Shown here: in pieces, positions 673 to 25,724 of the stretch
Layout of the letters: each line of letters starts with the position of its first letter
How positions within the stretch are numbered: the first letter of the stretch is position 1
NCBI GenBank assembly: GCA_019694835.1
Contig: JAIBBE010000230.1
Coordinates: 1-26,673, forward strand
Reading direction: 5' to 3'
Source: Fimbriimonadaceae bacterium
GTDB lineage: Bacteria; Armatimonadota; Fimbriimonadia; Fimbriimonadales; Fimbriimonadaceae
Length of the DNA stretch: 26,673 bases
The notes under the pieces: generated by a model
Told to the model about the DNA's origin: nothing
Databases searched by the model: none
Seen by the model: the letters and a program-made list of their open reading frames with translations, nothing else
Program-made: the position numbers and the translations under genes

Positions 673-687
673 AGGAGGCGACAGGCG

Positions 688-1522: not shown

Positions 1523-4180
1523 TCAGGTCACGCTGACGTACTCGATCCGACCAATCGGCGAGCCGAGTTTCAAATACCGGCGCTCATGGCAGGTCAAGAT
1601 CAAGACTTGATGTCTCCGAGATGCGATTGCCAAACTCGTCAGTGCGTCGGCGAAGCGTTCATCATCCGCATAGACTAGTGCGTCATCGAGGATGATCGGT
1701 GCGGTTATTCCTTGGTCGGCGAGCATATCGGCAAAGGCAATACGGGTGATGACCGAAATCTGCTCGCGAACGCCTACGCTCAAGGCGAAGAACGGCTCAA
1801 CGCTCCCATGTCGCTCAAGTCCCTCAAGCTCTAGCCCGCTACTCAGCTGGATACGCGCGCCGGGAATGATACGACTCAAGTAGGGCTGCACGCGCGCGAT
1901 CACCGGCTCGAGAAACCGCGTGTTGGCATCACGCTCTGCCGCCTGTAAGACGCTATTCAGCACTCGGAGCGCGTTCGCGTCCTGCTCCGTGACTTGCAGC
2001 CGGACCCGAGCAAGCGACAGCTCAGACTCCAAGGATGCGCAAGTGTCGCCGACACCCTTCTGCCCCAACCCATCAAGCCGGCCCTGCAGTGTCAGGACCT
2101 CGCGATCGATTGTGGCGATTTGAGCATCAAGCTCAGTGATGGCGTTCGTAGCGCCGGTCAGTCGAGCTTCGACTGCATCGGCATCAGCCTGCCTATACGC
2201 CGATTCCAGTGCAGCGAACCGCTCTTGACAAAGCTGCTCGGCCTGGAGCGCGGTTTCGATACCTGCGGCCAGAGAATCGTCCGTTTGAGATGCACGGCCG
2301 TCCGTCAACAGCTTGCGTCGAATCTGAAGATCTCGTTCCGCGGCGCTTAACTCGGCGCTCTTGGTCGCCAGTTCCAGTCTGACGGACATCACCGCCTGAC
2401 GGTGTACCTCAACGTCGGCGTTGGCCGTCCTGACATTCTGCTCGGCGACCGTGTACTCTTGCTTGACCTCTTGAAGAGCCAGCTCTGCTTGAACTCTGGA
2501 TGAAGGCTCCGTTATCGTCGCACAAGTACAGAGGTGAGCCACTTCTGCCCGCAAAGCCATCACCTTCGCGGCAAGCTTATCGAGACCGCCAGGTGCAACT
2601 TCAGCGAGAACTGCTGCGGCACGATCCTGCTCGGCTTCCAATCGTGTGCGCTTTTCCGCATTTTCCACAGCTGCTTCGACTGTCGGGGCTCCTATCTCAC
2701 CTAAAAGCCTTGCGAGCTCGTGCTGACAGTTCTGCAGTGTGATTCTTCGATCCAGAATCTCACTTCCACCCGGCGTCACCGTGAGACGGCCCCCCGCCAC
2801 GCTTACCTCTACAGGTTCCGAGGCAAGCACGCTCTCGCGGCTTCCCAACGGATCTCCGTTGATCAAGATATCCGCTCGGTCGGGGAAAGCGAAATCCAGC
2901 TTGGTCGCAGCGGAGTCCACATACGCCTTCGCTTCCAGAACGGCGCGTTCGGCGCTTTGTAGCTTCTTGATCCAGCCTTGATCCGCCCTGAGCGCCTGCA
3001 GTTCGGTTTGTAGGTTCTTTACACGGGTTGTGATCTCCTGCGCCTTGGTGAGAGCGGCTGATGCGATGCCTAGCTCTTCTGACGCACGAGCATGCCGGAG
3101 GACGATGTCTGCGATGTCTAGCGCCTGTCGGGTGGTCGTCAACCGGTCAGATGCCCCTGTCCACCTCTGTTCAGCCAGCCTCGCGCCGGATTGCTTCACT
3201 TCAAGCTCGGTCTGCAAGCCTGCAACCGCGTTCCGCAAGGTGGACGCGTCTTCTTCGGCTTTCGATACCGAAGCGATGAGTTCCTGCCGTTCGTACAACG
3301 CGATTTGCGCAGCAGTCTTGCCTGCAGTTGCGAGCTGTAGTTGCCGCGCAGCCTCTTGAAGTTCCGACTCCAGTTGTGCGAGCGAGGCGGCTGCTTTCTT
3401 GGCATCGGAAAGATGGTCAACGAGCTGATTCCGCAGCTCGGGATCAGAAAGTGATGCGCGCCTCTTTTGCGCGGCATCGAGGCGGTTCAAATCTTCGGTA
3501 AACGCCGCAAACTCATCCCGTGCCTGCGCGAGCTTTGCCTGTAGCGTCTCGACGGTTTTCCGGGCGGCCGCCAAGGAGCCGGTCTCCTGTCCTGTTTTGG
3601 TGAAGTACGCCGCGGTGCCCTGTTCGATTCGCCGGCGGAGCCGATCTCCGTTCTCACCAATTAGAATGTCACCGACTTCCTTCGTCAGGCTGGAGTGAAC
3701 TGTGGTCCTGACGTCCGCGTTGATGTTCAACCCTTGGAATGTAGTACCCTGCTCAACCCAGAACAAGGGCCACATCCCTAGAGTGGAGAAGTCCGTAGCT
3801 CCACGGGATGCTGCCTGGAACCGCAGCAGCTCTTCCAGCTTGTGGTCAGCGTCCTGATTGGCGTATCGGCGGCCGTCAGGACACACGAGCTCTGCGGAGC
3901 CCCCGCCGCCAAACGACTTCCGCAGCCGGTATTCACCATCTGCGAGTTCAAATCTTAGGTAAACCTGCGGACGCACTGAGCAGCCGAAGGGCTGCATCGC
4001 TGCAAGCACCTTTCCGGTAACGTTGTGACGCTGGAAAAGAGCCGCTTGAACGGCAGCCAGGAGGGTCGATTTCCCAATCTCGTTCTCGCCTGCGATGACG
4101 TTTGCGCCGTCTCGAAGATTGCTCACCTTGGCGTGGCGAAGCTTGCGAAAGTCTTTGATTTCAATGTCGCGAAGTTTCAT
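1523..4180 (-). CDS. SMC/Rad50-like (YhaN/SbcC-type) coiled-coil ATPase
   Basis: An 885-aa ABC-type ATPase split by long coiled coils, as in Rad50/SbcC and the YhaN group. The Walker A motif is GENEIGKST at about residues 31-39. The ABC signature LSVGVREQ lies at about 800-807, Walker B LDD with D832-D833 follows, and an H-loop LTCH comes near the C-terminus. In between, helical heptad-like stretches are interrupted near residues 450-500 by a short beta-rich, Gly-containing section, and a CTC pair (C551, C553) sits near the middle of the second half. This is not a canonical CxxC zinc hook. The start chosen is the ATG at 4180 (MKLRDIEIKDF), which has GGGGG upstream and begins at the conserved N-terminal strand; longer starts would overlap the upstream gene. 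It lies 1 bp after the Mre11-like stop, so the two are translationally coupled and probably form a nuclease-ATPase complex acting on DNA ends. Confidence 0.85.
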   Translation of the reverse strand: MKLRDIEIKDFRKLRHAKVSNLRDGANVIAGENEIGKSTLLAAVQAALFQRHNVTGKVLAAMQPFGCSVRPQVYLRFELADGEYRLRKSFGGGGSAELVCPDGRRYANQDADHKLEELLRFQAASRGATDFSTLGMWPLFWVEQGTTFQGLNINADVRTTVHSSLTKEVGDILIGENGDRLRRRIEQGTAAYFTKTGQETGSLAAARKTVETLQAKLAQARDEFAAFTEDLNRLDAAQKRRASLSDPELRNQLVDHLSDAKKAAASLAQLESELQEAARQLQLATAGKTAAQIALYERQELIASVSKAEEDASTLRNAVAGLQTELEVKQSGARLAEQRWTGASDRLTTTRQALDIADIVLRHARASEELGIASAALTKAQEITTRVKNLQTELQALRADQGWIKKLQSAERAVLEAKAYVDSAATKLDFAFPDRADILINGDPLGSRESVLASEPVEVSVAGGRLTVTPGGSEILDRRITLQNCQHELARLLGEIGAPTVEAAVENAEKRTRLEAEQDRAAAVLAEVAPGGLDKLAAKVMALRAEVAHLCTCATITEPSSRVQAELALQEVKQEYTVAEQNVRTANADVEVHRQAVMSVRLELATKSAELSAAERDLQIRRKLLTDGRASQTDDSLAAGIETALQAEQLCQERFAALESAYRQADADAVEARLTGATNAITELDAQIATIDREVLTLQGRLDGLGQKGVGDTCASLESELSLARVRLQVTEQDANALRVLNSVLQAAERDANTRFLEPVIARVQPYLSRIIPGARIQLSSGLELEGLERHGSVEPFFALSVGVREQISVITRIAFADMLADQGITAPIILDDALVYADDERFADALTSLAIASRRHQVLILTCHERRYLKLGSPIGRIEYVSVT

Positions 4181-4181
4181 C

Positions 4182-5309
4182 TTATTTTCCCCCGATTGAA
4201 TGCTCGACATACAAACGATGCAGTGCCGCCTCCGCGAAGGCCGAGTCTGGATCGCCGGCACTGCTGGATAGAGATCTCAGTCGCTGCACGACGTCAGCAA
4301 TGTAGCCATGCCTGCCCAGTTCGTCGAGGTCGGTCTCGCTCGGAAGACTTCTCAGATTGGACGTGTCAAGCCTCAGCACCTGGAGTCTTGCCTCCAAGTC
4401 GGCGAGACATTCGTCAATTCGGGTGCGTTCGGCCAGACTGACCGCTCCGCTCAACCTCAGGTCGACCACAGATTTCGCCCAAGGTTCCTCGATCCCGGCC
4501 AACGCAGTCCGAAGACCTACCTCTGAATCGGGGCTGTGGAGTACGGCCTCGATTCGTTGCCATTTATACTCGCCGACTCGAACGGGTTCGACTGTGGGAG
4601 GCTGTTTGGGTCCGGCGATGTCGACCACCAACACATACCCGGATGTTTGGTCAAACCCGTCAGCCTCGGGCGTGCCCGCATACCAAGTACGAGGGGCGAT
4701 CTCCCGCATCGAGTGCCAGTCGCCAAGAGCCAAGTAGTCGAGCTGCGCTTGCTCGGCGCGCGTATCGAGAATCATGTTGTGCGTTTCTGCCGAGGGCGCC
4801 AGGCGGTTCTGGAGAGAGCCATGAGCCAGACCAACTCGAACAGCGCCGGCAGGAGTAGGACAGGCATCAAAGTGGCTGGTTGGGTCGGCGTACTGATGAC
4901 GCCGGGTAAGTGGTGCTGGCACGATCGCGAGGGCACCATCCGCCAGCAGGATCGGCTGCTGTTCACGAGCAAGTATGACGTTGGCAGGGCATCCTATTCT
5001 TGTGATGCGTTCCCAGATGCTGCTCGCCCCATCCGGGTCGTGATTGCCAGGCAAAAGAACCCAGACGAGCTCCGTCTCGGACATTGCAGCCAGAGCTTCT
5101 CGGAGCACTAGTTCGCGCAACTCGGAACGCTCGAACACGTCCCCTGCTACGAGTACCGCCGAAGCAGACCGCTCCCTGGCGAGTTTACCGACCCGACGGA
5201 TCACGTCGATTCGGGCCTTCCTGAGGAACGCAAGCCTGTCAGAAGGCGCCGCGAGGCTTTCAAACATCTTTCCGATCTGAAGGTCGGCGGTGTGGATGAA
5301 TCTAGGCAT
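4182..5309 (-). CDS. Mre11/SbcD/YhaO-like DNA repair metallophosphoesterase
   Basis: A 375-aa calcineurin-like phosphoesterase with all the family blocks: HTADLQIG (D9, with Q11 in place of the usual second-motif His), VAGD (D57), PGNHD (N89-H90-D91), AHG (H163) and GDWH (D197, H199). Mre11/SbcD-type enzymes use two metal ions to cut DNA ends as partners of SMC-type ATPases, and such an ATPase is encoded 1 bp downstream. The D-x-Q form of motif I also occurs, from memory, in a group of bacterial YhaO-like proteins, so I do not take it as inactivating. The start is the ATG at 5309, preceded by GGAGG; a longer frame to 5369 would run deeper into the upstream gene. The first 8 bp overlap the end of the 164-aa gene. 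Confidence 0.85.
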   Translation of the reverse strand: MPRFIHTADLQIGKMFESLAAPSDRLAFLRKARIDVIRRVGKLARERSASAVLVAGDVFERSELRELVLREALAAMSETELVWVLLPGNHDPDGASSIWERITRIGCPANVILAREQQPILLADGALAIVPAPLTRRHQYADPTSHFDACPTPAGAVRVGLAHGSLQNRLAPSAETHNMILDTRAEQAQLDYLALGDWHSMREIAPRTWYAGTPEADGFDQTSGYVLVVDIAGPKQPPTVEPVRVGEYKWQRIEAVLHSPDSEVGLRTALAGIEEPWAKSVVDLRLSGAVSLAERTRIDECLADLEARLQVLRLDTSNLRSLPSETDLDELGRHGYIADVVQRLRSLSSSAGDPDSAFAEAALHRLYVEHSIGGK

Positions 5310-5796
5310 GGTGGGCCTCCTCCGTATAGCCATTTGCGGTCGTCGCCCTGGTGGACAGGCACAGCTCACAATCCGCCTGGAAGCTTCTCAGCCGAGCCGC
5401 CTGCTGAACTAATGTGCTGTCTTCGAGGACAGAGAGAACGATCTTCCTGCCGAGCGGAAGCTCACGGCACGATGCATACAACTCGTGTCGCCGTTCTCCA
5501 CTGATAGTCGTCATGTCGAACCGGGCTGCCCCCGAACCGGCCTCAGCTTTGAATGCTTGGGCCAGCGGTCTATGAGCGCCAGTTAAGGCGGCGACCATGA
5601 GCAGGAGGTCCTCGAGCATGTTCTCGACCGTAGGAATCCAGATGGCGAGCCGGCTGAAACTCCCTTCCGATTTGATCCGGTAAAGACTAAGAGAGGGCCG
5701 GTCGTTCTCGGTCAGGAATAGTACATGTGTGGGATTGATCCCGCCACCGGAAGGGTGTGCGTGGCCAATCACTGCGGTCGCTGTGGTAGTAGCCAT
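5302..5796 (-). CDS. Unknown 164-aa protein, first gene of the Mre11/SMC unit
   Basis: I do not recognise this family. The protein is soluble by composition, with no signal peptide or membrane segment. After a Thr/Ala-rich start it has a GHAHPSGGG segment, beta-like strands (HVLFL, LSLYRI), a hydrophobic helix around residues 55-75, and a C-terminus with CRELPLGRK and two cysteines four residues apart in DCELCLS. It overlaps the Mre11-like gene by 8 bp, so it is translationally coupled to the nuclease-ATPase pair and is likely a third component or adaptor of that complex. The start ATG at 5796 has only a weak AGAAG upstream and lies next to an inverted repeat and a candidate sigma-54 promoter. 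A GTG eight codons in is an alternative start but has no Shine-Dalgarno sequence. Confidence 0.7.
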   Translation of the reverse strand: MATTTATAVIGHAHPSGGGINPTHVLFLTENDRPSLSLYRIKSEGSFSRLAIWIPTVENMLEDLLLMVAALTGAHRPLAQAFKAEAGSGAARFDMTTISGERRHELYASCRELPLGRKIVLSVLEDSTLVQQAARLRSFQADCELCLSTRATTANGYTEEAHHA

Positions 5797-5798
5797 TC

Positions 5799-5814
5799 TG
5801 CGCTTCTAAGCGCA
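5799..5814. repeat. Perfect inverted repeat at the start of the 164-aa gene
   Basis: TGCGCTT-CT-AAGCGCA: 7-bp perfect arms around a 2-bp centre, ending 2 bp before the start codon at 5796 and overlapping the -12 half of the candidate sigma-54 promoter. On the transcript or DNA it could act as an operator or as a structure covering the ribosome-binding region. The repeat is certain; its role is inferred. Confidence 0.5.
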
Positions 5815-5826
5815 AGCGCAGCGCCA
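5811..5826 (-). promoter_or_regulatory. Candidate sigma-54 (-24/-12) promoter for the Mre11/SMC unit
   Basis: On the minus strand this reads TGGCGCTGCGCTTGCG. Against the consensus TGGCACG-N4-TTGCW it keeps TGGC and TTGC exactly and has GG-N10-GC spacing (GG at 5824-5825, GC at 5812-5813); 9 of 12 consensus positions agree. The predicted transcript start, about 12 bp downstream near 5800, would leave a leader of only a few bases before the ATG at 5796. This is odd and lowers confidence, unless translation starts further in. Confidence 0.45.
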
Positions 5827-5873
5827 AACCAGACGTTCGTGTTTTGAACAACTTACGGCCACTTCAGGAGGCC

Positions 5874-5898: not shown

Positions 5899-5908
5899 TT
5901 AAAGCGGA

Positions 5909-8656: not shown

Positions 8657-11032
8657 CTATGCTCCCGATGTGATCGTCTTTTCTCCCGGCAGACTAGCGA
8701 GCAGCGCCGCCGTTTCATCCAGGATGCGCTTACGCTTTTGGGCATCACTTCGCTCCAGGTACTTCTGCTGTGAAGTGACGATCGCTTCTGCGATCGACTG
8801 GAGCGGATCGCGGTGACCTTCGAAGGCATCCAGAATCTCGTTCTCCACTTCCTTGAACAGATTCGTGAGGATTCGGATTGCCGGTTTCTCCGCGGCATCG
8901 GTCACCTCATCGGCAAGCTCATCGTACAGATCCAAAATGCGAAGCTTGACTCCGGCACCGCGATCCCGGCTCGAATCGATAAAGGACTTGCACCGCTTCC
9001 GGATCGGACCGTCAATCGTCTCAATTAGGAGAGTCGCGTTCTTGTCGCGAACCTCTTTCATCATCTCCTTTCCGACAGTTTTCAACCGCTCCGAATCGGC
9101 TCGGATCGCTTCTCGCTGCGCTTCGACGACCTTCTGCTGAACTCGCGCACCCTGATCTTGAGCCCAAATGTATACCTGATCGACCAGCGATAGACAGCCA
9201 TTCGCGTAGTCATTCGTGCGCTTCCGAATGTCCCTCAAGATCTCCTTGCCCCAGGTTTCTGCGATTGGCTCTTCGAATTTTAAGGCGAATTCGCGCTGTA
9301 TATCGATTTCGGTTGCCCCAGAGAAGCGCCCACCACGCCTTACTGAAGCGCGGAGTGTTGCCCAATGGGATTGACCGAGCTTGTTGAGGTACCGCTGGAT
9401 CTGGTTCCGGGAGCGCTCCTTTGCCGTCTTCACCAGGTCCGTGATGCGGCTTGGAACCGTCGCCCTCAGGAACTCCCGATACTGCCCCTGCAGCGTGTCG
9501 AACTGCCGCCGCAGGGGCCCGATAAAAGCCTCCAGTTCCTGGCGAAGCTGCTCGATCTCCTCAAGGCGCCGTTCTTCATCCATCCATTGGGCCTGAACAA
9601 GGCGGATCGAGGACGCGACGCCTTCCAGTAGGGTGTTGTAGTGTTGTTCCACCTTCGCCTGGCGCTCGCGTTCGAGACTGCTCCGTAGTTCTCGAAGGCC
9701 GGAGATCATCAATGGCACGTTCGTTTGTTCAGGGTGGTCCAGATCGCTCCGTTTCCCGGCGATGAGCCTGCGATACTGAACGGCCGAGAGCGGGTAAACG
9801 CGGAGGGTCGATAGCAGGTTCTCGATGACCGCGCGTTTGGGCTCCCCGAGATCTCCATCCTCCTGCCACAAACGTTCGATCTCACCTCGCAACTGAGACC
9901 GAACCAGCGGGATGGTCCGTTCACAAACGTGCGCAAAGTAGTCGGAGAACTCTCGATCGCCGTCGTCCGAGTATTCGCTATCGGCGACGTCGTCCACCTT
10001 CGTGACCGCGACCACCAATACCGGGTTCCCGGCGGGATCGTCAGTCGTGTGGAGCAGCTTGGCAAGGAACTCACTGTCTCGCAGAAGACGCGCGACAGGT
10101 TCTGTGATGCCGCGGTTGTCCACGACAAGGACGACTGCGCGCGCCCGTTCGCGGATGTAGTTGCGCGTAACTTCCGGGCGAGGATCGCCTATGACTCCGA
10201 GCCCAGGCAGGTCGATAAGAGTAACGCCCTCACTGAGGAGTTGCGACGCCCACCAGACGTTAAGCGTCTTGATCAACGGAGCAAGGAAGCCGGATGCGTG
10301 ATCCTTGAGATCCTGCCTCAACTCTTCGGCGGAACCCTCCCGGACATACTTCGAGCCGTTCTTTGCCAATCGGAGGGCTGAGGTGATGCGCGCGAGCCGC
10401 TCGTTGTCCTCCGGATTTCGCGTTGTTCCCCATCTGCGGTGATAGCCGAGTGCCTCGCGCAAGCTGTCGATCAGGTACCCGATCGGAGTGTCTTTGCTCT
10501 GCTCACCCGTCACGAGTAGTTCTGCGACCTTCCGCGCTTCGAGTCGGCCCTGAAGCTTGCCGTCGGTGGGCTGATCCGGGTCGTCCTTCTCGCCAGGCAT
10601 GTCGGAGCCCAACTCCGCGAGCACTTCGCCTGGCGTATCGTCCTGTTCTCCTGGGCTGCCGAGTTCCGACTTCCACGAGCTTTCAAGGCCGAACACCAGC
10701 TGCCAGAGACGTTGTGCACCGTAGTACTCAACTTCAATTCGTGGCTTAGCGCCATGTCGAACGGAAAGTGCCTGGGCCGTGAGAGGCCCTACGCCACCGG
10801 AAGGGACGACAGTGTGCCCTTCGGCCACGAGCGCATTGATGAGCGTGCTCTTTCCAACACCCGAGTTCCCCAGGAAGCAGACCGGGAGTTCTTGACCAAG
10901 CGTAGCCGTCGACTGCACCAAGCGATCACAATCACGATCGAAGTCCGACAACCGCTCTGGAGCGTTCTTCTCCAGAAACGATCTAGCTTGATCTCTGTAC
11001 CATGCTGTTAGCTGCTGCGCTTGCTCCTGCAT
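8657..11032 (-). CDS. Dynamin-like large GTPase
   Basis: A 791-aa protein with a complete GTPase signature: G1 GNSGVGKS at about residues 55-62, G3 DLPGLG at 274-279 and G4 TKVD at 344-347. A long, charged, mostly helical C-terminal half follows (residues ~470-790). This resembles bacterial dynamin-like proteins and SLIP-GC-type GTPases, with a large insertion rich in acidic residues between G1 and G3. No clear transmembrane segment is visible. Dynamin-like proteins bind or remodel membranes, and several act in phage defence by limiting lysis. The start chosen is ATG at 11032 with GAGGAG seven bases upstream; a TTG one codon earlier is possible. The first 50 bp overlap the end of the nuclease gene, and the stop abuts the helicase ATG, which places it firmly inside the restriction operon. 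Confidence 0.88.
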   Translation of the reverse strand: MQEQAQQLTAWYRDQARSFLEKNAPERLSDFDRDCDRLVQSTATLGQELPVCFLGNSGVGKSTLINALVAEGHTVVPSGGVGPLTAQALSVRHGAKPRIEVEYYGAQRLWQLVFGLESSWKSELGSPGEQDDTPGEVLAELGSDMPGEKDDPDQPTDGKLQGRLEARKVAELLVTGEQSKDTPIGYLIDSLREALGYHRRWGTTRNPEDNERLARITSALRLAKNGSKYVREGSAEELRQDLKDHASGFLAPLIKTLNVWWASQLLSEGVTLIDLPGLGVIGDPRPEVTRNYIRERARAVVLVVDNRGITEPVARLLRDSEFLAKLLHTTDDPAGNPVLVVAVTKVDDVADSEYSDDGDREFSDYFAHVCERTIPLVRSQLRGEIERLWQEDGDLGEPKRAVIENLLSTLRVYPLSAVQYRRLIAGKRSDLDHPEQTNVPLMISGLRELRSSLERERQAKVEQHYNTLLEGVASSIRLVQAQWMDEERRLEEIEQLRQELEAFIGPLRRQFDTLQGQYREFLRATVPSRITDLVKTAKERSRNQIQRYLNKLGQSHWATLRASVRRGGRFSGATEIDIQREFALKFEEPIAETWGKEILRDIRKRTNDYANGCLSLVDQVYIWAQDQGARVQQKVVEAQREAIRADSERLKTVGKEMMKEVRDKNATLLIETIDGPIRKRCKSFIDSSRDRGAGVKLRILDLYDELADEVTDAAEKPAIRILTNLFKEVENEILDAFEGHRDPLQSIAEAIVTSQQKYLERSDAQKRKRILDETAALLASLPGEKTITSGA

Positions 11033-12074
11033 CAATTGACTCCTCTAGAAAGTTCTGCTTCAGGAACTCGATAGTGGCCGGATGGGTTAACCGGCAAACG
11101 ATATTCTGGTTGGCGAACAAGCCGTCAGCCCATTTCGCCTCGGCGAGGGAATATGTGTGTTTCCAATCAACACCGACCGCGTACTCCTGCAACTCCGGAT
11201 CACCTGCATCGTGCTTGAGCTTCGGCTCGGCCAGGGGGAGGTCGAACAACGCTTGACCATCCACGGTGAAATCGCCTGCGGGGACTGAAGACTCCCTCAC
11301 GATTCCGTAGCCGACGTAACCACGGCCCTTCTGGTACGCAAACACCGGGTCCCCGGCTTGAAGTTTTTGGAGCTTGCCTGAATATTGTGTGCCACCGCCC
11401 GCCGCGATGAACCCGTACCGGCGCATGTCCTCCCAGGAACGGTCAGGCTCACCGATGTTGACGTAGTACCACCCAGACCACGGTAGTTGCTTCCGTGCCC
11501 GAGCCTTCTCAACCACTTGCTCTTGGTCTATCAACCAGTCGGTCGCAAGCAGAAGCGTGCCCTCGTGCTCGAACACGTTGAAGAACGCGGTGTTGATGCT
11601 CACGCCATACTCGTCAGAGAGGTACTCAACGATTCGACGTGAGGCGGCATCGAATTCGCTAGCGACAATCAGCATTGAATGGCTGTTGTTCAACGCATCG
11701 GGCAGTGGTTCGCCAAAGAACGCCTCGAATCCCACCTCAAGGGACTTCTGCAGGTACGCCGTACCGATGTCGTGAATGTCCTTTGGACTGAGCTTGCGTA
11801 CCCAGCTCGCGTAGTCGAGGATCTGTGCTACGATCTCGCGGGGCGTCCGGTCCCGCTTCAATTCGATAATCGTCGCGTTTCCGTCGCGGTCGAGCCCTAA
11901 CAAGTCTATACGGCCCCCGCAAGACGTTGGGACCTGACGTCCGACAATCATCACTTCGAGTCCGATCGACCGTGGATCTTTGGCAATCCAACCTTCCAGT
12001 TGGTCTTCCCTGGTGAGTCGCGACCGCTGAAGCGGAATGAGGTTCTCGTCGGCAACTCGGAACAGGTTTGTCAC
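10983..12074 (-). CDS. NucS-like PD-(D/E)XK nuclease with C-terminal EVE/PUA-like domain
   Basis: A 363-aa two-domain protein. Residues ~20-110 match the NucS/DUF91 nuclease core: an acidic helix (E23/E27), GGRIDLLGLD with D57, then IIELKR with E71 and K73, the E-D-ExK metal-binding set, followed by a basic helix. The second half (~195-350) starts WYYVNIGEPDRSWEDM and continues with GFIAAGGG and GDPVFAYQKGRGYVGYGIV, the pattern of EVE/PUA-like domains that bind flipped or modified bases. A nuclease joined to such a reader suggests recognition of modified DNA, for example phage DNA carrying unusual bases. The start is GTG at 12074 in a GTGA overlap with the hsdS stop, so it is translationally coupled to the specificity subunit. 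The fold assignment is by motif only; substrate is inferred. Confidence 0.8.
   Translation of the reverse strand: MTNLFRVADENLIPLQRSRLTREDQLEGWIAKDPRSIGLEVMIVGRQVPTSCGGRIDLLGLDRDGNATIIELKRDRTPREIVAQILDYASWVRKLSPKDIHDIGTAYLQKSLEVGFEAFFGEPLPDALNNSHSMLIVASEFDAASRRIVEYLSDEYGVSINTAFFNVFEHEGTLLLATDWLIDQEQVVEKARARKQLPWSGWYYVNIGEPDRSWEDMRRYGFIAAGGGTQYSGKLQKLQAGDPVFAYQKGRGYVGYGIVRESSVPAGDFTVDGQALFDLPLAEPKLKHDAGDPELQEYAVGVDWKHTYSLAEAKWADGLFANQNIVCRLTHPATIEFLKQNFLEESIDAGASAAANSMVQRSS

Positions 12075-14777: not shown

Positions 14778-14781
<4 letters not shown>
13264..14781 (-). CDS. hsdM: Type I restriction-modification N6-adenine methylase HsdM
   Basis: A 505-aa N6-adenine methyltransferase. The N-terminal helical HsdM domain ([20 protein letters not shown]) precedes motif [11 protein letters not shown] at about residues 186-195, which binds AdoMet, and motif IV NPPF at 295-298, which holds the target adenine. 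YEYLLGKL and GQFRTPRHI just before motif I are typical of HsdM. With HsdS it methylates the recognition site and so marks self DNA. All catalytic residues are present, so an active enzyme is expected. Its ATG overlaps the hsdR stop (ATGA) and its stop overlaps the hsdS start (ATGA), giving R-M-S order with full translational coupling. Confidence 0.95.
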
Positions 14782-18176
<3,395 letters not shown>

Positions 18177-18214
18177 GCTGACCACGACCTCATGATCGGC
18201 CGTACGGACCTATC

Positions 18215-18342: not shown

Positions 18343-19869
18343 TCAGCTTGAAGAGGGCGTGGCAGAGGCTCGCCGCCGGACATGGTCGCTGATGTTGGCG
18401 CCCGTCATTCCGAGCAGCCGAGCGGCCTTGCTCTGATTTTCCCCACTTATCTCCAAAGCGCGGGCTATCATCCTCTGGCGCAGGTCTTCGATGTATTGCT
18501 TCAGATCGAAGCCCTCGTAGGGCTCTGGCAGATTCGCAAGCGGATCAGGGGTTAGGCTGTCGTCGAACTTGATGTCGTCCGCGCCTAGAATCTCCTTTCC
18601 GTGGGAAAACATAAACGCTCCGTTGATGGTGGACCGCAGTTCACGAACGTTGCCCGGCCAGTGGTAGGACTGCAGCTTCATCAGGGCGTCGGAGGAAAGC
18701 TGACGCTGTTTCCGAGTGGTCTTGTTCTTCGCTTCGAGGAGAAGGAGTGCGATCCGCGAGATGTCGCTGCGACGACTTCGAAGCGGAGGCAAGTGAATCT
18801 GAACCGTGTTGATGCGATGAAAGAGGTCTTGACGAAACCGCTTCTCGGCGACCTCTGACCCAAGGGATCGGTTCGTGGCAGCAATGATGCGAACATTCAC
18901 CTTGACTGGCCTGGTCGACCCGACCGCATCGACCAGACCATCTTCGATAACCCTTAGAATCTTCGCCTGTGCCGCGAGAGGCAGCTCGCCGATCTCGTCA
19001 AGGAATAACGTGCCCTCGTTCGCAAGTTCGAACTTCCCCTTCTTGTCGGCGTTTGCCCCCGTGAACGCACCACGCTTATATCCGAAGAGTTCGCTCTCTA
19101 CCAGCGTTTCCGAGATCGCTGCACAATTCACGACGACGAACGGACCGTTCCTCCGACCGCTGATTCGGTGGACAAGCTTGGCGAACAGGTCTTTTCCAGT
19201 CCCAGTCTCACCTGTGACGAGCACGGGGTCTTCATAGTCAGCACATGCCACGGCACGATCGAGAGCCGCGCGCATGCTGGGGTGTTCGGCGATAATCCCG
19301 AGCTCTTGCAGCACAGCGGCAACCTCTGGACCCGCTTCAATTGGCTCGGCGCCGAACAGCGCGCTGGCGCTCGAGGGAATCACCCTCGGGAAGGGCGTAC
19401 CTTCAACATCCACCTCGCACACAAGCGGCTTGTCGTCGGTGACGAACTGGGGTGGTCGCGAATGGATGAGCGTGGCTGGTATCTCTTTGGCGGCCGCAAG
19501 CAGGAGCCAGCAGGCGTGCATCTGGGGAGTTCCAGACGCGGTAGAGATAGACAGGGCCGCTTTCGGATCGCGATCTACGATTTTTCCGCACTCGCGCCGC
19601 AGATGCGCAAGGATTTGCGAGTAGTCGGTTGGATCTTCCAGCGGCAGCTGGACAACTTCCACCGTAGTTGCCGGGCATTCTTCGGCGACCGCAGCTGCCG
19701 TCGCTGAAGTCTGTTCCGCCATTCGTGGGGTGCCAAACAGCACGACTCTGTCGAACTCGCGAGCTTTGAGAACGGTCAGAATTGGCCCGGGCTGCTCTTC
19801 GCCAGCGACCGGCGCCTTTACATATGGGTCGTGAGAACCCGTAAACGTGAGTAGAATGCTGCTAACCAC
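18343..19869 (-). CDS. RtcR-like sigma-54 activator with CARF-like sensor domain
   Basis: A 508-aa three-domain regulator. Residues ~1-185 look like the CARF/Rossmann sensor of RtcR: alternating strands and helices (ILLTFTGSHDPY, FDRVVLFGTPRM) and the typical SISTASGTPQM motif. The AAA+ sigma-54 domain has Walker A GETGTGK ending at K226, the sigma-54-contacting loop GAFTGA at 267-272, Walker B TLFLDE, and an R-rich sensor segment (FRQDLFHRINTVQIHLPPLR). A Fis-type helix-turn-helix closes the protein (GENQSKAARLLGMTGANIS). CARF domains bind nucleotide-type signals; RtcR of E. coli responds to RNA damage. I infer it activates the adjacent hsdR promoter and the upstream promoter at 25709-25724. 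The start is GTG at 19869 with a weak Shine-Dalgarno; it lies 69 bp behind the ATPase gene, so it is probably co-transcribed with it. Confidence 0.9.
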   Translation of the reverse strand: MVSSILLTFTGSHDPYVKAPVAGEEQPGPILTVLKAREFDRVVLFGTPRMAEQTSATAAAVAEECPATTVEVVQLPLEDPTDYSQILAHLRRECGKIVDRDPKAALSISTASGTPQMHACWLLLAAAKEIPATLIHSRPPQFVTDDKPLVCEVDVEGTPFPRVIPSSASALFGAEPIEAGPEVAAVLQELGIIAEHPSMRAALDRAVACADYEDPVLVTGETGTGKDLFAKLVHRISGRRNGPFVVVNCAAISETLVESELFGYKRGAFTGANADKKGKFELANEGTLFLDEIGELPLAAQAKILRVIEDGLVDAVGSTRPVKVNVRIIAATNRSLGSEVAEKRFRQDLFHRINTVQIHLPPLRSRRSDISRIALLLLEAKNKTTRKQRQLSSDALMKLQSYHWPGNVRELRSTINGAFMFSHGKEILGADDIKFDDSLTPDPLANLPEPYEGFDLKQYIEDLRQRMIARALEISGENQSKAARLLGMTGANISDHVRRRASATPSSS

Positions 19870-19898
19870 TTGAAAACGAATTCTATCAGGGGTCGCAA

Positions 19899-19913: not shown

Positions 19914-19938
19914 AGAGCGGTGAAGAGCGCCTCAGCGG

Positions 19939-21489
19939 TTAGCTGGCGATCTCGGTCGTGAGCTGGTCAGCGAGCTGCAGGCACCACATGGTAACGGCGA
20001 TACTGTATTCGAGGCTTTGCCGTGGTCCCCGTAGGTGAGCGCCGGTGTTCCCTACCGCGGGCAGCCCCTCCAGAAGGTGATAGGTAAACCGAGAGATCCT
20101 GCATGGCAGCGTACAATTCTGCTGGGTCATGAGATCCAGAATCCGGCACTGGGGGCCGAGTTCCGTCGGAATCCTCGGCGACCGGGGCCGGTCCTCGAAC
20201 TTTCCGAACTCCCGAATCCATTCGCCGGGGATTTCAAAACCGTTGAACTCTCGATTCCAAATCAATTCGAAGGCTCGATTCGCGATCAGACGCGGTTTGC
20301 TGATGACAATATCAGGCTCATCAAGCTTCTCGACCATATCGGTGAGGTGGGTCATGATGGTTTTATCCACCCCAACAAGCTGGCCCAACCGGAAATCAAG
20401 AACCGTTCGCATGTTGCGACAGTACGCCTCTTTTGATTCGAAGAACTCCTTCAGACTACCCCCGGCCTGGCCGTGCTCGGACGCCGCGTAGGACCGAAGA
20501 AGGCCGCTTCGTATCGACTGAAGTTTGCCCTGCTGAACGACGATGTGGCTCTCCACCAAAGGTTTTGCTGCTTTCGGAAGCTCAATCTGTTTGCCCGTCA
20601 CGCCAAGCTCCGCCAGAAGACGCTGTTGCTCTGCACTGAAAGAACGCCACACCTCGGGGAGGAGGGTATCTCCATCGTGCTGTAGTCTGCGGGCCGCAGC
20701 GTTGACAGTCTCGTTGGTCAGTACATCACCTTCCGATGCACCATCCCAAACGTTCCGACACAGCCCGGCAACAAGGGGCGGCACCCCGCCAGACCAATTC
20801 CAAATCTCTCCAACAAAGCCCTTTCCAACCGTCAGGTTTCTTTCCCGGAATGGCTGAACAGCAGCGTCGACATCTTCCTCAGTCAGGCAACGTAGGTAGT
20901 GAGGTGTGGTATCGAACAGCTTCCAGAAATGTGAGGTTTCAGAACCCGGCACCCAGCAGAGCTCGTTGAGTGTCCTGCGACTGATCGCAAGGTACCGAAT
21001 GCTTTTGTACCGATCAGCTAGGGCACCGAGGTTGTCCCACAGATTCTGAGTTAAGACTCCCCGCCCGAGAAGATGGTCGAAGCTGTCCATGCAGACCAGC
21101 ACACAGATGTTTAGCTCGTCAAGGTATTCGAATACATCACGAACCTCGTCATAATGCTGCTGCTCTGCGTGCTTCAGCTTTTCCGCCGAGTCTCTGTCGA
21201 CGGCTTCCAGCCCCCGCGACAACACTTGTGCGAACTGAGCATAGAACTCGGCGTCGTCTCCCGCGGTCCTTGTGCCAAGGTCCCAATAGATGCTGCTGGT
21301 AATTCCTCCGATTGGTTTCGAGAAGATCGAGCACAGCTCCCGAGCAAGCGCCGTCTTCCCCATATACCTCGGCCCAACAATTGACAGATGGTTCTTCGGT
21401 ATGAGGCGACTAAACTTCGCCAGCTCTGCCTTACGTCCAAGGCATGGAACGTCTGCTCTACCAAAGACTACGTAGGGGTTCTGGTCCAT
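19939..21489 (-). CDS. STAND-like AAA ATPase (516 aa)
   Basis: An ATPase of the STAND/archaeal-ATPase type. It begins with an LGRKAEL box, then Walker A GPRYMGKT at about residues 39-46, Walker B CVLVCMDSFDHL at about 129-140, and a later SRR sensor-like segment (YLAISRRTLNEL). The middle has a winged-helix-like region. The last ~45 residues (AVGNTGAHLRGP followed by a Tyr/Trp-rich helix) resemble the DUF4145/HEPN-like module also seen at the N-terminus of HsdR, though without a clear catalytic R-x4-6-H motif. The ATG at 21489 follows the large fusion gene by 14 bp, with GAAGAG upstream, so the two are co-translated and may act together. Substrate or effector activity is not evident. I do not recognise an exact family. 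Confidence 0.8.
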   Translation of the reverse strand: MDQNPYVVFGRADVPCLGRKAELAKFSRLIPKNHLSIVGPRYMGKTALARELCSIFSKPIGGITSSIYWDLGTRTAGDDAEFYAQFAQVLSRGLEAVDRDSAEKLKHAEQQHYDEVRDVFEYLDELNICVLVCMDSFDHLLGRGVLTQNLWDNLGALADRYKSIRYLAISRRTLNELCWVPGSETSHFWKLFDTTPHYLRCLTEEDVDAAVQPFRERNLTVGKGFVGEIWNWSGGVPPLVAGLCRNVWDGASEGDVLTNETVNAAARRLQHDGDTLLPEVWRSFSAEQQRLLAELGVTGKQIELPKAAKPLVESHIVVQQGKLQSIRSGLLRSYAASEHGQAGGSLKEFFESKEAYCRNMRTVLDFRLGQLVGVDKTIMTHLTDMVEKLDEPDIVISKPRLIANRAFELIWNREFNGFEIPGEWIREFGKFEDRPRSPRIPTELGPQCRILDLMTQQNCTLPCRISRFTYHLLEGLPAVGNTGAHLRGPRQSLEYSIAVTMWCLQLADQLTTEIAS

Positions 21490-21503
21490 CGCTTTTCTCT
21501 TCG

Positions 21504-24500
21504 TTACTCCTCGATGGCCTCGCGCGTTGCGGCCTGAAAGTCGATCTTCGTTCGCAGCCAGCGCGAGAAGAGCGGGACTTCGATCCTGTAATGACCGATG
21601 TTAGATTCTGCGACGAACCGGATGATCTCCTGTTCCTGCAACTCTTCGAGGTCCTCCTTCAACTTGCCATCACTCCCCACGGGTACGCCGCTTGCTTCCA
21701 TTTGGTCCCGGATCAGATCAAAGGTCACACGTGCAGGCGCATCTGTCAGCTGATCGATGAGCGATGCGAGGAAGCGCTGGCGCGCGGTCAGGGCCTGCTG
21801 CCGATAGATTGTTTGGAAATGCTCATTGTTCGCCACCATTGAATCGGCTGATTTGTTGACGAGCTCCGTCGTTACGCTTGTCAGGTTGCTGCTCGCACAT
21901 ACCTCAAAAATGTTGCTGGCAAGCGACTGGACTAAGAAGGGTTGATGCGCGCACAGTTCGAGTAGTCTTTCTATAGCGGAATCGCTATAACTCAGGACTC
22001 CACTCGCTGGCTCGATCACAAGTTGACGCGCTGCCGCGGGTGATAGCGGGCCCACTGGTATCGGGGTCCCGATTCCGAACAACACGTTCCAGTACTCTTT
22101 GCGAAGCTTCTTGATTCGAATCGAACCACTCAGGATGCCAGAGACCCTGTTGTAGGTATGGAAGATGTACCTGAAGTTCTCAGGTACGAGCGGGCTCATC
22201 TGATGTTGCTCTATGCCTTGGTGAATCTTTTCAAATTCGTCCAACATAAGCAGAATACGTCGGGACCCGATGCTGCTCAGAGCAAGTTCGAGCAAGCTCT
22301 CAAACTGCTCAAATGGTCGCTCACTGCCGATTGTCGCCACTAGCTCACGGCATAGCGTCTTCCTCCGCAATGGATCAGCGTTTGCAATTGCCCGGAGTGG
22401 TTCGACTAACTCAGGCGTGTGAGGTGTTGCGACAGCATACAGGAGCTCCCGCGCAACAAGCCTATACAGGCTTTGCGCGTTCGGCTCTCCGCCGATACCC
22501 TGAAACTGGCAGTACACGGGTATCCAGTTGCGAAGCGTATCCGACTGTTGAAGCCTATGCAGTATCGAGGTCTTGCCAGCCCTCCGATTTCCCTCTAGAA
22601 GGATGACTGTTGATGGGCCGTCGGGTCTGAGAAGTCGATGGATCTGATCAATAATCTCCGCACGGCCGAAGAACGTTCGGTCGGTGTCCACGGGCGCACC
22701 CGTCACGTAAGGGTTCACGCGGAACGGATCAGGAGTGCGTATCTCCGAGATCTGGGTGACCTCGATCGAAACCTGCTCGCTCCCGGTCGCTCTCTTTCCG
22801 TTAATCCTCTCGCCGCTCCACAGAATCCTGAACTGCTGCTTGCCCGTCAGCGTTGGCGTGAACGCAAACGTGAGGCTTGCTTCCTGCTCTGGCCGAACCA
22901 ACGCCAGTTCCTTTTGTGTCTCAAGCTCTTGCACCAGTATCGAAACTCTTCGCAGAGGGCCGACGCCCCCGTTAACCAGCGAGACTTGCAGCTCCGACGG
23001 AACATCCACGACAAAACTCGTACTCTTGAGGGAAACCCTCAACGATGCCGAGTCCGCGATGCGAGCGGCTTCGGTGCTAGCGGCATCCATAAGCACCTCA
23101 CACATCGCGTGGAATCGAGCGGCTGCCTTGCTCCGAATGCCCGGTGAGGGAAATGCCTCCTGAGCGCGATCCTTTGCTGGCCAGAGTTCGTGAAGCGCCC
23201 ACTTATCCCAGCTCTGGAGCGCAGCGTAGCGCTCCAAGCCTGGCGGAAGTTCCACTGCGTCTGCGAGAGCCACCGCATGCTCTGCCCAGATCCTGAGGTA
23301 TCGCGCCAGTTCTTCGTCTTCTCCCTCCTCGGCCTCCATTGAACGGCACCGCCCGATAGTCTGATCTAGCGCCCGCCACCAATCCGCCGAGTACCCGGAG
23401 CCATCCCCGGCTTTGAGCAGAGCGTCCACCCCTGCATCATTGAGCAGGAATGTAGTCCACTGCGATTCGCCGCTCATTCGGCGGAAAACAGCGAGCACCG
23501 CGCTCGCATCGTCGGTCGACCGGACGGCTTCCGCTAGAAAGCGTTGCTGCTCCAGAGTCAATGCCGGGATCTGCAACGCTCTAACTGCGCGCGTACTGAG
23601 GTGTTGGATGACGCTGCCAGTGGCCCTAGCCCTGAACCAGTCCAGATACGGAGCAGTTTGGAGCAGGCGAAACATGGCGATCGCGTCGAACACGGGCCTT
23701 GGTCGAATGACGATCAGTCCGTTGGCGGGAACTGCACCGGCCAGTACCTGATCAACAACAGCAGTGTGGCCAACTGTGCCAGACCGCGTGAGCAATATGT
23801 CGCCTGCCTTCAGCCTCAACTGTTCGGCCACTTTTCGAGCAGCGTGGGGCCTCAAGAACATCGATGGACGTCGGACCTTTGCGTAACGTCTTTGTTCGTC
23901 CTTTCGCGAGCTTACGTCCTGAACTCGTACGAGCGGAACGATCTGCTGTGCGCTTGAGTTCGGAAGTTGCGGATCTTCGTCTTTGGGCAGAGGAGATCCG
24001 TGCACCTCAGGATCTCGCACGATATCTTCACTCGTGTAACTAACGCCACTGAGGACCTCCGCCACTTCCTCAAGCGCCACGATTTCCAATGGACCAAGTT
24101 GATTGCGAATGAGGTCTAGGAACGAATCAAGCTCGTCAGCACTGGCCGAGGTGGGCACCAGTTCCCAGTGGCGCTTCGCCAGTTCGTGCACGGGAACCGT
24201 CCTTACATCTTCTTCAACGCTGCTGCCCGAGCTAGCTCCCTGCGGCAGGTCCGGAATTTCTCGTCCATGAGCTAGGGCATTTCGCCATCTCTGCCACTGC
24301 GCGACGAAGCTCTCTTGACCGCGACCAGGCCAGTTCTGCATAGCCACAAGCCCAGTGAGTACCGCCAAGCCAGTTGGGCCTATGAGGCTAGCTATTGATT
24401 TGAGCCCAACCGCCGCAGCGAGGGGGCCAACCAAGTATCGAGATCCCGTCAAGGTCGCTAGCAGGTGCCGCTTCCCGCTTCCCGGGGGCTCCGACAGCAG

Positions 24501-25652
24501 AATATGGTCGCGCTCTTCTCGATTCGACAGGATAGGCGTCGTCACCCGTTCGCCGATGAATACGACACTCGGAACGGGCGGATCGCGACGGATTACGACA
24601 ATGCTGGCCTTGAGACCCGCCGAAGATCTGAATACTCCTTTAGGGATCGACCATATGGTTTCCACCGAGTATTCGCGGACAAGCTTTCGTCGAAGTTCTA
24701 CGTCTGCTCCCCTGCGGAATAGAAAACTCTCGGGCACCACAATCACGGCCCGGCCACCTGTTCGAAGCCGTGCGAGGATGTGTTGAATGAAGGCGGATTC
24801 CGAGGACGCGGTTGGTATCGGATAGGACGCGACAACGTCCTTCGGAGGCCTAAAGCCGAAAGGAACGTTTGCGAGGATGCAATCGAACTCATTGTAAGGC
24901 GCGGAGGCAGGAATGGGGTCCGCGAGTGAATCAGCAATTCTCAGCTCTGGGTGTGGCTCGCCGCTGAGTATGATGCGTGCGAGTGCAACGACGTAGAGCG
25001 TTGGTTCGAGTTCCTGCCCCCAAATGGACGGTTTTGGACGTGATCCATCTACGCGTCGGTCAGCTGTAGCCCCGAAAACCGCAGATGCGGCGCGAGCCAA
25101 CAAACTACCTGTTCCAAAACACGGATCGTAGATTCGCTCTCCAGGTTGTGGATCCGCTAGCGCAACCATCAAATCAGCGAGATCCCCAGCCGTTGTGAAC
25201 TCCCCCCCGTACTTCGCCTCACGCGCCCAGAGAGCGATCGCAGCATTGAGCGTAAGCAGAAGTTCCGACCGGCCCTGAGTCGTTTGCGCGTCGGTCGATT
25301 TGATTCCATCCCAAAGGAACCCGGCAGCTCGGGTTGACGAAAGTCCGCCTTCATCGACAATTCTCGGAACAGGAACTTTCAGTGGCGCCTCGACGCCCAC
25401 CATGCGTGGCAGGTAAGTCCAAGAACGGGCAAGCGCTTCGACTTCCTCCATCGAATCGCTAATTCCGGCCGAAGCGAAGATCGTTCGTCGCCTGATACCC
25501 TCCGCTTCCGGGCCAGAGGCCAGTCGAAACAGGACCAAACCGGCGACAAGCTGCAAAAGCTCACCCGCTGCGTTCGAGAGTCCCGACGAATGCAGTTCGT
25601 CTGCGACCATCGGTAGTCGGCGTGCCAGTTGTCCTTGTGCTGGAGTATTCAC
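21504..25652 (-). CDS. Methylase-like/HsdS-like/STAND ATPase fusion protein (1382 aa)
   Basis: A large multi-domain protein. Residues ~130-360 are an HsdM-like N6-methylase fold with motif I DPCFGTGSLL (176-185), but motif IV is NVPF (262-265) instead of NPPF. Residues ~520-710 resemble an HsdS target-recognition domain (LEEVAEVLSGVSYTSED, LKAGDILLTRSGTVG, VRALQIPALTLEQQRFLAEA). A beta-rich Ig-like section follows at ~880-970 (SFVVDVPSELQVSLVNGG). The C-terminal third is a STAND-type ATPase: FFGRAEII, Walker A EGNRRAGKTS near 1019-1028, Walker B LLMLDEF with D1138-E1139, and a winged-helix-like end. The altered motif IV suggests DNA or AdoMet binding without methylation, so a sensor role is more likely. 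The start is GTG at 25652 with AAAGG close upstream, 57 bp after a strong sigma-54-type promoter. First gene of the unit with the 516-aa ATPase and the activator. Confidence 0.88.
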   Translation of the reverse strand: MNTPAQGQLARRLPMVADELHSSGLSNAAGELLQLVAGLVLFRLASGPEAEGIRRRTIFASAGISDSMEEVEALARSWTYLPRMVGVEAPLKVPVPRIVDEGGLSSTRAAGFLWDGIKSTDAQTTQGRSELLLTLNAAIALWAREAKYGGEFTTAGDLADLMVALADPQPGERIYDPCFGTGSLLARAASAVFGATADRRVDGSRPKPSIWGQELEPTLYVVALARIILSGEPHPELRIADSLADPIPASAPYNEFDCILANVPFGFRPPKDVVASYPIPTASSESAFIQHILARLRTGGRAVIVVPESFLFRRGADVELRRKLVREYSVETIWSIPKGVFRSSAGLKASIVVIRRDPPVPSVVFIGERVTTPILSNREERDHILLSEPPGSGKRHLLATLTGSRYLVGPLAAAVGLKSIASLIGPTGLAVLTGLVAMQNWPGRGQESFVAQWQRWRNALAHGREIPDLPQGASSGSSVEEDVRTVPVHELAKRHWELVPTSASADELDSFLDLIRNQLGPLEIVALEEVAEVLSGVSYTSEDIVRDPEVHGSPLPKDEDPQLPNSSAQQIVPLVRVQDVSSRKDEQRRYAKVRRPSMFLRPHAARKVAEQLRLKAGDILLTRSGTVGHTAVVDQVLAGAVPANGLIVIRPRPVFDAIAMFRLLQTAPYLDWFRARATGSVIQHLSTRAVRALQIPALTLEQQRFLAEAVRSTDDASAVLAVFRRMSGESQWTTFLLNDAGVDALLKAGDGSGYSADWWRALDQTIGRCRSMEAEEGEDEELARYLRIWAEHAVALADAVELPPGLERYAALQSWDKWALHELWPAKDRAQEAFPSPGIRSKAAARFHAMCEVLMDAASTEAARIADSASLRVSLKSTSFVVDVPSELQVSLVNGGVGPLRRVSILVQELETQKELALVRPEQEASLTFAFTPTLTGKQQFRILWSGERINGKRATGSEQVSIEVTQISEIRTPDPFRVNPYVTGAPVDTDRTFFGRAEIIDQIHRLLRPDGPSTVILLEGNRRAGKTSILHRLQQSDTLRNWIPVYCQFQGIGGEPNAQSLYRLVARELLYAVATPHTPELVEPLRAIANADPLRRKTLCRELVATIGSERPFEQFESLLELALSSIGSRRILLMLDEFEKIHQGIEQHQMSPLVPENFRYIFHTYNRVSGILSGSIRIKKLRKEYWNVLFGIGTPIPVGPLSPAAARQLVIEPASGVLSYSDSAIERLLELCAHQPFLVQSLASNIFEVCASSNLTSVTTELVNKSADSMVANNEHFQTIYRQQALTARQRFLASLIDQLTDAPARVTFDLIRDQMEASGVPVGSDGKLKEDLEELQEQEIIRFVAESNIGHYRIEVPLFSRWLRTKIDFQAATREAIEE

Positions 25653-25708
25653 GGTGCCTTTGGAGCCAAAATCAGCTTATCGCAGCGACGCTGCTCGATT
25701 CAGTACCA

Positions 25709-25724
25709 AGCAAGCGTGCTGCCA
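25709..25724 (-). promoter_or_regulatory. Strong sigma-54 (-24/-12) promoter upstream of the fusion gene
   Basis: On the minus strand this reads TGGCAGCACGCTTGCT. It matches the consensus TGGCACG-N4-TTGCW at 10 of 12 positions, with perfect TGGCA and TTGCT and exact GG-N10-GC spacing (GG at 25722-25723, GC at 25710-25711). The transcript would start near 25698, leaving a ~46-base leader before the GTG at 25652. The unit it would drive ends with the sigma-54 activator gene, implying positive autoregulation. Confidence 0.8.

What the first reader, a model, noticed from the sequence alone, without database searches (positions are those of the whole stretch)
1523..25724. Composite, apparently undescribed defence island built around a type I restriction core
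Eleven intact genes plus a CARF-like sigma-54 activator run on one strand: methylase/HsdS/STAND fusion, STAND-like ATPase, activator, hsdR, hsdM, hsdS, NucS-EVE nuclease, dynamin-like GTPase, SNF2 helicase, unknown 164-aa protein, Mre11-like and SMC-like proteins. Gaps are minimal and many genes overlap, so this reads as one evolved system rather than a random cluster. The BREX (pglZ) and DISARM (drmA/drmB) hallmarks are absent. I do not know a named system with this gene set.
Basis: partly seen in the sequence, partly recalled or inferred. Interest (0 to 1): 0.9.

Follow-up and report, generated by a model that had tools for sequence, protein, structure and literature searches.

The report
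Stress-switched multi-part anti-virus operon
A bacterial gene cluster combines a classic DNA-cutting defence system with several extra defence parts, and it probably switches on through one special start signal when a stress sensor fires; it matters because two of the extra parts look like undescribed modules found in distant bacteria.

Summary
In detail: twelve intact, closely packed minus-strand genes (1523-25652) around a type I R-M core. It is not one indivisible system but a composite of modules that mostly occur apart: (1) a CARF-sigma54 activator with hsdRMS, a link already in print; (2) a methylase-TRD-STAND fusion with an Orc/Cdc6-like ATPase; (3) a NucS-type nuclease; (4) a dynamin-SNF2 pair; (5) an Mre11-SMC pair and a small new family.

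New evidence: (a) a sigma54 -24/-12 element lies between activator and hsd genes in 19 of 20 loci (the 20th by hand). A matrix from those loci ranks the site at 25724-25709, ahead of the fusion gene, first of 53,316 window positions. (b) Activator-hsdR-hsdM-hsdS-fusion-ATPase recurs in that order in three phylum draws. The STAND motif is intact in 98 of 98 fusions, the methylase motif canonical in only 42 of 97, suggesting a DNA-reading sensor. (c) SNF2 follows dynamin in 27 of 29 loci across many phyla.

Function was not tested. Likely a new variant of activator-led restriction superoperons carrying two apparently unnamed modules.

The parts
25709..25724 (-). predicted sigma54 -24/-12 promoter TGGCAGCACGCTTGCT ahead of the fusion gene
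   Evidence: best of 53,316 positions with a matrix from 17 distinct sites of other loci: 18.8 bits, next 11.1, training range 12.3-22.6
21504..25652 (-). methylase-TRD-STAND fusion, 1382 aa; SAM motif kept, methylase motif IV altered (NVPF)
   Evidence: Pfam N6_Mtase 6e-36, AAA_16 1e-8; PADLOC HsdS models at about 564-725; motif survey
19939..21489 (-). partner ATPase, 516 aa; Orc/Cdc6-MuB/TnsC-STAND type N-terminal half
18343..19869 (-). CARF-AAA+-HTH sigma54 activator (RtcR-like, not the RNA-repair RtcR equivalog)
   Evidence: PADLOC RtcR_PspF2 1.1e-130; NCBIfam RtcR 324 bits vs cut-off 650
14778..18185 (-). hsdR, 1135 aa
   Evidence: PADLOC REase_I 7e-284; 53.6-55.3% identical to eight activator-linked HsdR of the Pseudomonadota draw
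13264..14781 (-). hsdM, 505 aa, canonical NPPF
   Evidence: PADLOC MTase_I 2e-176
12071..13267 (-). hsdS, 398 aa, two target-recognition halves
   Evidence: Pfam Methylase_S 9e-18 over 15-180; PADLOC Specificity_I over 15-396
10983..12074 (-). NucS-type nuclease with PUA/EVE-like C-terminus (EVE by eye)
   Evidence: PADLOC PDC-S11 1.7e-125; D57, E71, K73 invariant in 4 aligned proteins
8657..11035 (-). dynamin-like GTPase
   Evidence: Pfam Dynamin_N 1e-12; 540 proteins with E<=0.001 among 7997 scored
5909..8656 (-). SNF2/RapA-type helicase, partner of the dynamin
   Evidence: PADLOC HmaA 2e-51; best PDB sequence match RapA; follows dynamin in 27 of 29 loci
5302..5796 (-). u164, small protein of a new family
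   Evidence: 12 proteins found, the window's own included; model pLDDT 86; no confident PDB match
4182..5369 (-). Mre11/SbcD-like phosphoesterase (true start probably inside)
   Evidence: Pfam Metallophos 8e-7; NCBIfam sbcD 1e-12, 48 bits, below cut-off 77.65
1523..4261 (-). SMC/Rad50-like ATPase (true start probably inside)
   Evidence: Pfam AAA_23 9.5e-10; relatives pair with an Mre11-type gene in 4 of 4 plasmid regions read
5811..5826 (-). weak sigma54-like site ahead of u164
   Evidence: 7.0 bits, rank 13 of 53,316; suggestive only

Best explanation
A composite anti-invader superoperon. The activator's CARF domain senses a ligand of infection stress, by analogy with RtcR an RNA end with a 2',3'-cyclic phosphate (inferred). 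It then activates sigma54-RNA polymerase at the promoter at 25724-25709 (predicted). One transcript carries the fusion, the ATPase, the activator itself (positive feedback), hsdRMS, the nuclease, dynamin and SNF2, and perhaps u164, Mre11 and SMC.

HsdRMS cuts unmodified DNA (family knowledge). The nuclease with a PUA/EVE-like end would cut modified DNA that escapes HsdR (inferred). The fusion uses a methylase-TRD clamp to read DNA and, with the Orc/Cdc6-like ATPase, acts as an NTP-dependent sensor or backup rather than a second methylase (inferred from motif conservation). Dynamin-SNF2 and Mre11-SMC are separately mobile defence-type modules captured into the operon; their mechanism is a guess.
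For: Gene order, overlaps and motifs. Sigma54 element in 19 of 20 activator-to-hsd gaps at >=10 of 12 matches; the 20th was found by hand inside a probably over-long hsdR call. The 20 form 13 groups at 80% HsdR/M identity. Three hsdR genes without an adjacent same-strand activator lack it (8, 7 and 9 of 12); L011, whose activator is on the other strand, has one at 10 of 12. Matrix from other loci ranks the window's pre-fusion site first. No terminator-like site on the minus strand in 17900-20100, 5250-6100 or 1300-1700. Six-gene order in three phylum draws. STAND Walker A intact in 98 of 98 fusions, methylase motif IV canonical in 42 of 97, but in 7 of 7 separate HsdM. SNF2 follows dynamin in 27 of 29 loci; distance matrices correlate, r 0.90, n 26, 0 of 2000 permutations. 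Mre11-SMC pairs beside SIR2/ATPase and DUF4297-HerA genes in two of the four plasmid regions read.
Against: The window's own activator-to-hsdR gap has no good sigma54 site (rank 573; shuffle p 0.27), unlike its relatives. The window's CARF part is 41% identical to that of L069 but only 22-25% to those of the two six-gene loci compared, and its HsdR about 29-30% to the three six-gene HsdR over 571-598 aligned residues, so the window may be a re-assembly rather than that system. The window fusion keeps Asn and Phe in motif IV, so it may still methylate; 23 of the 43 altered motifs are NPPI, perhaps one clade. The modules are mostly apart in genomes. No expression or phage data; host and its rpoN unknown.
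Confidence: 0.66

Rival explanations
1. A chance defence island: independent modules stacked by repeated insertion into a mobile element, each with its own expression, and no common control.
For: Modules occur mostly apart; gaps of 69-157 bp precede the activator, hsdR and u164 and could hold promoters; one sigma70-like site lies ahead of the activator, though no more than chance (1 found, 0.6 expected).
Against: All twelve genes on one strand, many overlapping; top-ranked sigma54 site at the head; six-gene order in three phylum draws; shared contig lengths among relatives of fusion, dynamin and u164.
Confidence: 0.22
2. One obligate twelve-gene system.
For: Tight packing; metagenome relatives may hold fusion+u164, dynamin+u164 and dynamin+fusion on the same contigs.
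Against: 0 of 29 dynamin loci carry fusion/ATPase, nuclease or u164; 0 of 33 activator neighbourhoods carry dynamin, nuclease or Mre11/SMC.
Confidence: 0.08
3. The fusion is an active second modification enzyme that widens protection, and the STAND part only regulates methylation.
For: SAM-binding motif DPCFG or DPCCG in 84 of the 86 alignment rows shown, 2 gapped, 12 of 98 rows not shown; canonical motif IV in 42 of 97; window fusion retains Asn and Phe (NVPF).
Against: 43 of 97 fusions lost the catalytic Asn/Asp or the aromatic residue, while Walker A is intact in 98 of 98.
Confidence: 0.25

Closest known systems
RtcR-like CARF-sigma54 activators linked to R-M systems (Makarova 2014, PMC4012209) and RtcR-led superoperons with type I RM and CoCoNuTs (Bell 2024, PMC11090510)
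   Same: CARF-AAA+-HTH activator with R-M genes on the same strand; both papers predict that it activates downstream genes (passages read).
   Different: No McrBC/CoCoNuT core among the twelve; carries fusion-ATPase and dynamin-SNF2; the activator lies inside the operon behind the promoter. The passages read of PMC11090510 show no promoter survey ('promoter' occurs once in its text).
BREX / BREX-related DUF499 (Hma) systems (PMC12839542, passages read)
   Same: Methylase plus Orc/Cdc6- or STAND-type ATPase plus SNF2 helicase logic.
   Different: No PglZ, BrxC or DUF499 among the listed matches; the ATPase goes with a methylase-STAND fusion and an HsdRMS core.
MADS (methylation-associated defence system)
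   Same: Methylase and HsdS relatives with ATPases (recalled).
   Different: NCBIfam MADS2 36.6 bits vs cut-off 720 and MADS5 39.4 vs 400 for the fusion.
PDC-S11 candidate nuclease (PADLOC)
   Same: Near full-length match 1.7e-125.
   Different: Here inside an hsd operon; in three plasmid regions read it is alone (Priestia), beside SNF2-hsdM-hsdS (Deinococcus), or beside nuclease and helicase genes (Halalkalicoccus).
Lamassu, Septu, Gabija ATPases; LeoBC dynamins
   Same: Shared P-loop ATPase/GTPase domains.
   Different: Only partial matches; their partner genes were not among the matches.

Membership tests
Type I restriction-modification | HsdR, HsdM and HsdS with intact motifs in one operon | tested here: met
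CARF-sigma54-led R-M superoperon | CARF + NtrC-like AAA+ + HTH protein next to R-M genes on the same strand | tested here: met
CARF-sigma54-led R-M superoperon | sigma54 promoter for the gene block | tested here: met
   by sequence only: rank 1 of 53,316, ahead of the fusion; not ahead of hsdR, rank 573
RNA-repair RtcR | equivalog score and rtcA/rtcB next to it | tested here: not met
   324 bits vs cut-off 650; no RtcA/RtcB match among the window proteins scanned
CoCoNuT | McrB/McrC-type CnuB/CnuC | tested here: not met
   no McrB or McrC match among the twelve proteins in Pfam
BREX | PglZ and BrxC | tested here: not met
   no such Pfam match and none in the PADLOC rows shown, which are capped at 25 per protein
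DISARM | DrmA/DrmB; DrmD above cut-off | tested here: not met
   no DrmB among the rows shown; the SNF2 protein matches DrmA and DrmD models, DrmD at 172 bits vs cut-off 610
MADS | MADS2/MADS5 above cut-off | tested here: not met
   36.6 vs 720 and 39.4 vs 400 bits
Orc/Cdc6-STAND AAA+ (partner ATPase) | Walker motifs and Orc/Cdc6-type AAA+ fold | tested here: met
EVE domain | Pfam EVE match | tested here: inconclusive
   no match at E<=1; similarity by eye only
active N6-adenine methylase (fusion) | motif IV [ND]PP[YFW] (recalled) | tested here: not met
   window has NVPF; 42 of 97 fusions are canonical
Anti-phage activity | protection in a phage assay | not testable with these tools
   needs experiment

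The most novel reading that the evidence does not exclude
The methylase-TRD-STAND fusion and its Orc/Cdc6-like ATPase form a new immune sensor: a restriction methylase turned into a DNA-reading trigger for a STAND NTPase. It would tell the cell, by way of the R-M recognition apparatus, that unmodified or wrongly modified DNA is present, and it is wired with HsdRMS under an RNA-damage-type CARF-sigma54 switch. It would be an NLR-like receptor whose ligand is a DNA site.
Probability: 0.35. Interest if true: 0.85.

Novelty: new variant of a known kind. Interest (0 to 1): 0.62.

Why it matters
It gives the predicted link between CARF-sigma54 activators and restriction systems a testable molecular handle: a conserved promoter in nearly every activator-hsd locus examined. 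That suggests that many type I R-M systems are inducible rather than always on. It also points to two modules I could not find named: a methylase-STAND fusion with its ATPase, and a dynamin-SNF2 pair spread over many phyla, one locus being in an archaeal draft genome. The latter would tie a membrane-type GTPase to a DNA motor, which no described defence known to me does.

Tried and rejected
One twelve-gene system: rejected as the main reading because modules are mostly apart. BREX, DISARM, MADS and CoCoNuT membership: rejected on tested hallmarks. Sigma54 promoter ahead of the window's hsdR: my first scan listed a strict GG-N10-GC site there, and three such sites in the 475 bp of gaps looked striking (about 8 expected per strand of the whole window; threshold chosen after seeing the sites), but the matrix ranks it 573rd, so I dropped it. 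The site before u164 is kept as weak.

Literature: ten searches. Only passages of PMC4012209, PMC11090510, PMC12839542, PMC10853773 and PMC7641849 were read; 'dynamin' occurs 0 times in the last four. Subscription papers are not covered, so 'unnamed' means not found there, nor in PADLOC 2.0.0 or NCBIfam 20.
Full report

THE ACTIVATOR AND ITS PROMOTER. A CARF-only profile (A2) matched 50 of 398 genomes of the Pseudomonadota draw and 11 of 199 of the Acidobacteriota draw (phyla inferred from the named locus each draw was centred on). There were 33 matches with E below 1e-19. A same-strand hsdR follows directly, or after one small ORF, in 16 of these, and hsdM in one (several contigs end early). 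I then asked whether a sigma54 promoter lies in the gap. In 20 loci with the activator followed by hsdR or hsdM (17 of the above, L150 with a weaker match, L019 and G958 from other searches), 19 have a site with at least 10 of 12 consensus matches, mostly TGGCAY-N5-TTGCT. The 20th, L140, has TGGCACACCCATTGCT just inside the called hsdR start. The 20 fall into 13 groups at 80% identity and 7 at 60%, so they are not one clone, though nine are close. Three hsdR genes without an adjacent same-strand activator lack such a site (8, 7 and 9 of 12); L011, with the activator on the other strand, has 10 of 12. Activator loci with other cargo are mixed: L133 has 11 of 12 and L146 10 of 12, the eight others looked at reach 6 to 9. 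A matrix made only from the other loci ranks the window site TGGCAGCACGCTTGCT, 25724-25709 on the minus strand, first of 53,316 positions at 18.8 bits; the next scores 11.1. The site before u164 ranks 13th; the one before hsdR ranks 573rd. So in this window the strong promoter sits ahead of the fusion, and the activator lies downstream of its own likely target. Makarova 2014 and Bell 2024 predicted activation of downstream genes; the passages read did not list promoters.

THE FUSION-ATPASE MODULE. The ATPase found one full-length relative in 297 genomes of the Acidobacteriota draw (15 other genomes had only partial matches). The fusion found one in 398 of the Pseudomonadota draw. An ATPase alignment found two in 109 of the Planctomycetota draw, none in 96 and 95 genomes of two other draws, and in 48 genomes of one order only the known one at full length. 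Three of these four genomes carry activator-hsdR-hsdM-hsdS-fusion-ATPase in that order (hsdS of L067 is named by its place and by its match to hsdS genes of other loci). The fourth has a fusion fragment and ATPase only. An Acinetobacter ursingii plasmid has hsdR-fusion-ATPase. In the window the pair stands before the activator, and the hsdR is of another subfamily: about 29-30% to those of the three six-gene loci, 53.6-55.3% to eight of the common activator-linked type. Thus the window holds the same six functions, re-assembled.

WHAT THE FUSION DOES. In 98 aligned fusions (the window's, four from loci, 93) the STAND Walker A is intact in 98 and the Walker B core MLDEF in 93. Methylase motif IV is canonical in 42 of 97. 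43 of 97 lost the Asn/Asp or the aromatic residue, 23 of them as NPPI, perhaps one clade. The other 12, the window among them, changed the first proline. Seven separate HsdM of the window and related loci are canonical in 7 of 7. Selection seems to keep the NTPase more than the methylation, and I infer a DNA-reading sensor with its own NTPase switch. This inference is untested, and the window clade could still methylate.

THE DYNAMIN-SNF2 PAIR. A scan of the 84,980-species collection with two peptide patterns gave 29 loci, by record title from Acidobacteriota, Planctomycetota, Chloroflexota, Verrucomicrobiota, Pseudomonadota, Myxococcota, Cyanobacteria and one Methanoperedenaceae draft genome. 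The SNF2 gene follows on the same strand in 27 of 29; the other two are cut or fragmentary. In 25 of the 27 the spacing is between -71 and +89 bp. Distances in the two proteins correlate (r 0.90, n 26, 0 of 2000 permutations), as expected for co-inherited partners, though shared ancestry adds to this. Among the few neighbours scanned, one locus each has McrBC (L009), AIPR/AbiU (L020) and Orf5/HEC-06-type genes (L018). Hsd genes lie near in 4 of 29, three on the same strand and upstream. PADLOC names no system for the dynamin beyond a partial LeoBC match.

OTHER PARTS. Relatives of the nuclease lie on 94 of 72,556 plasmid records, 41 with at least 80% coverage; in three regions read it is alone, beside SNF2-hsdM-hsdS, or beside nuclease and helicase genes. 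The Mre11-SMC pair recurs in 4 of 4 plasmid regions read, out of 114 records with an SMC match; two of the four lie beside other defence-type genes. u164 has 12 known sequences, the window's included, none with a Pfam domain. Its model is good (pLDDT 86), but no fold match is convincing.

HOW THE PIECES RELATE. The module counts argue against one obligate system. In favour of a composite that travels, a fusion and a u164 share a printed longest-contig length of 32188, a dynamin and a u164 share 78465, and a dynamin and a fusion share 9880. Chance expectations are 0.016, 0.034 and 0.23 (only the 120 best of 540 dynamins were listed). The first two are unlikely accidents and the third is weak. 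The contigs could not be fetched.

VERDICT. A real, intact and probably co-regulated composite: a new variant of the known CARF-sigma54-led restriction superoperon, with two modules I could not find named. The promoter result and the methylase-to-sensor reading are the new points; function remains untested.

Noticed in passing
window 1-1449: Two plus-strand ORFs, one with a sub-threshold VirB8 match and one hydrophobic, TrbL-like by eye: a possible conjugative element edge.
   Followed up: partly
L009 7194-9995; L024 7204-9997; L011 7509-9955; L069 4987-7598; L121, L123, L131, L140, L141: A pair of an AAA15 (NsnB/AriA-like) ATPase and a roughly 300 aa protein (no Pfam match in the two tested) repeatedly lies downstream of hsdS or hsdM in activator-linked or other type I R-M loci, and precedes dynamin-SNF2 in three.
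   Followed up: partly
L133 near 16850: An activator followed by a sigma54-like site TGGCATGAATCTAGCT and a run of non-R-M genes: the activator may drive other cargo.
   Followed up: no
L143, L144, L146 (one genome, G077): Three RtcR-like activators in one genome, two of them near very large ORFs (1903 and 3391 aa), none beside hsdR.
   Followed up: no
L182 about 8012: A strong sigma54-like site TGGCATATTATTTGCT upstream of xdhC and a fusion fragment-ATPase pair, with no activator found on the contig.
   Followed up: partly
L073 (Deinococcus plasmid pDrdI): SNF2-type gene, NucS-type nuclease, hsdM and a short hsdS in a row: another hsd locus with this nuclease.
   Followed up: no
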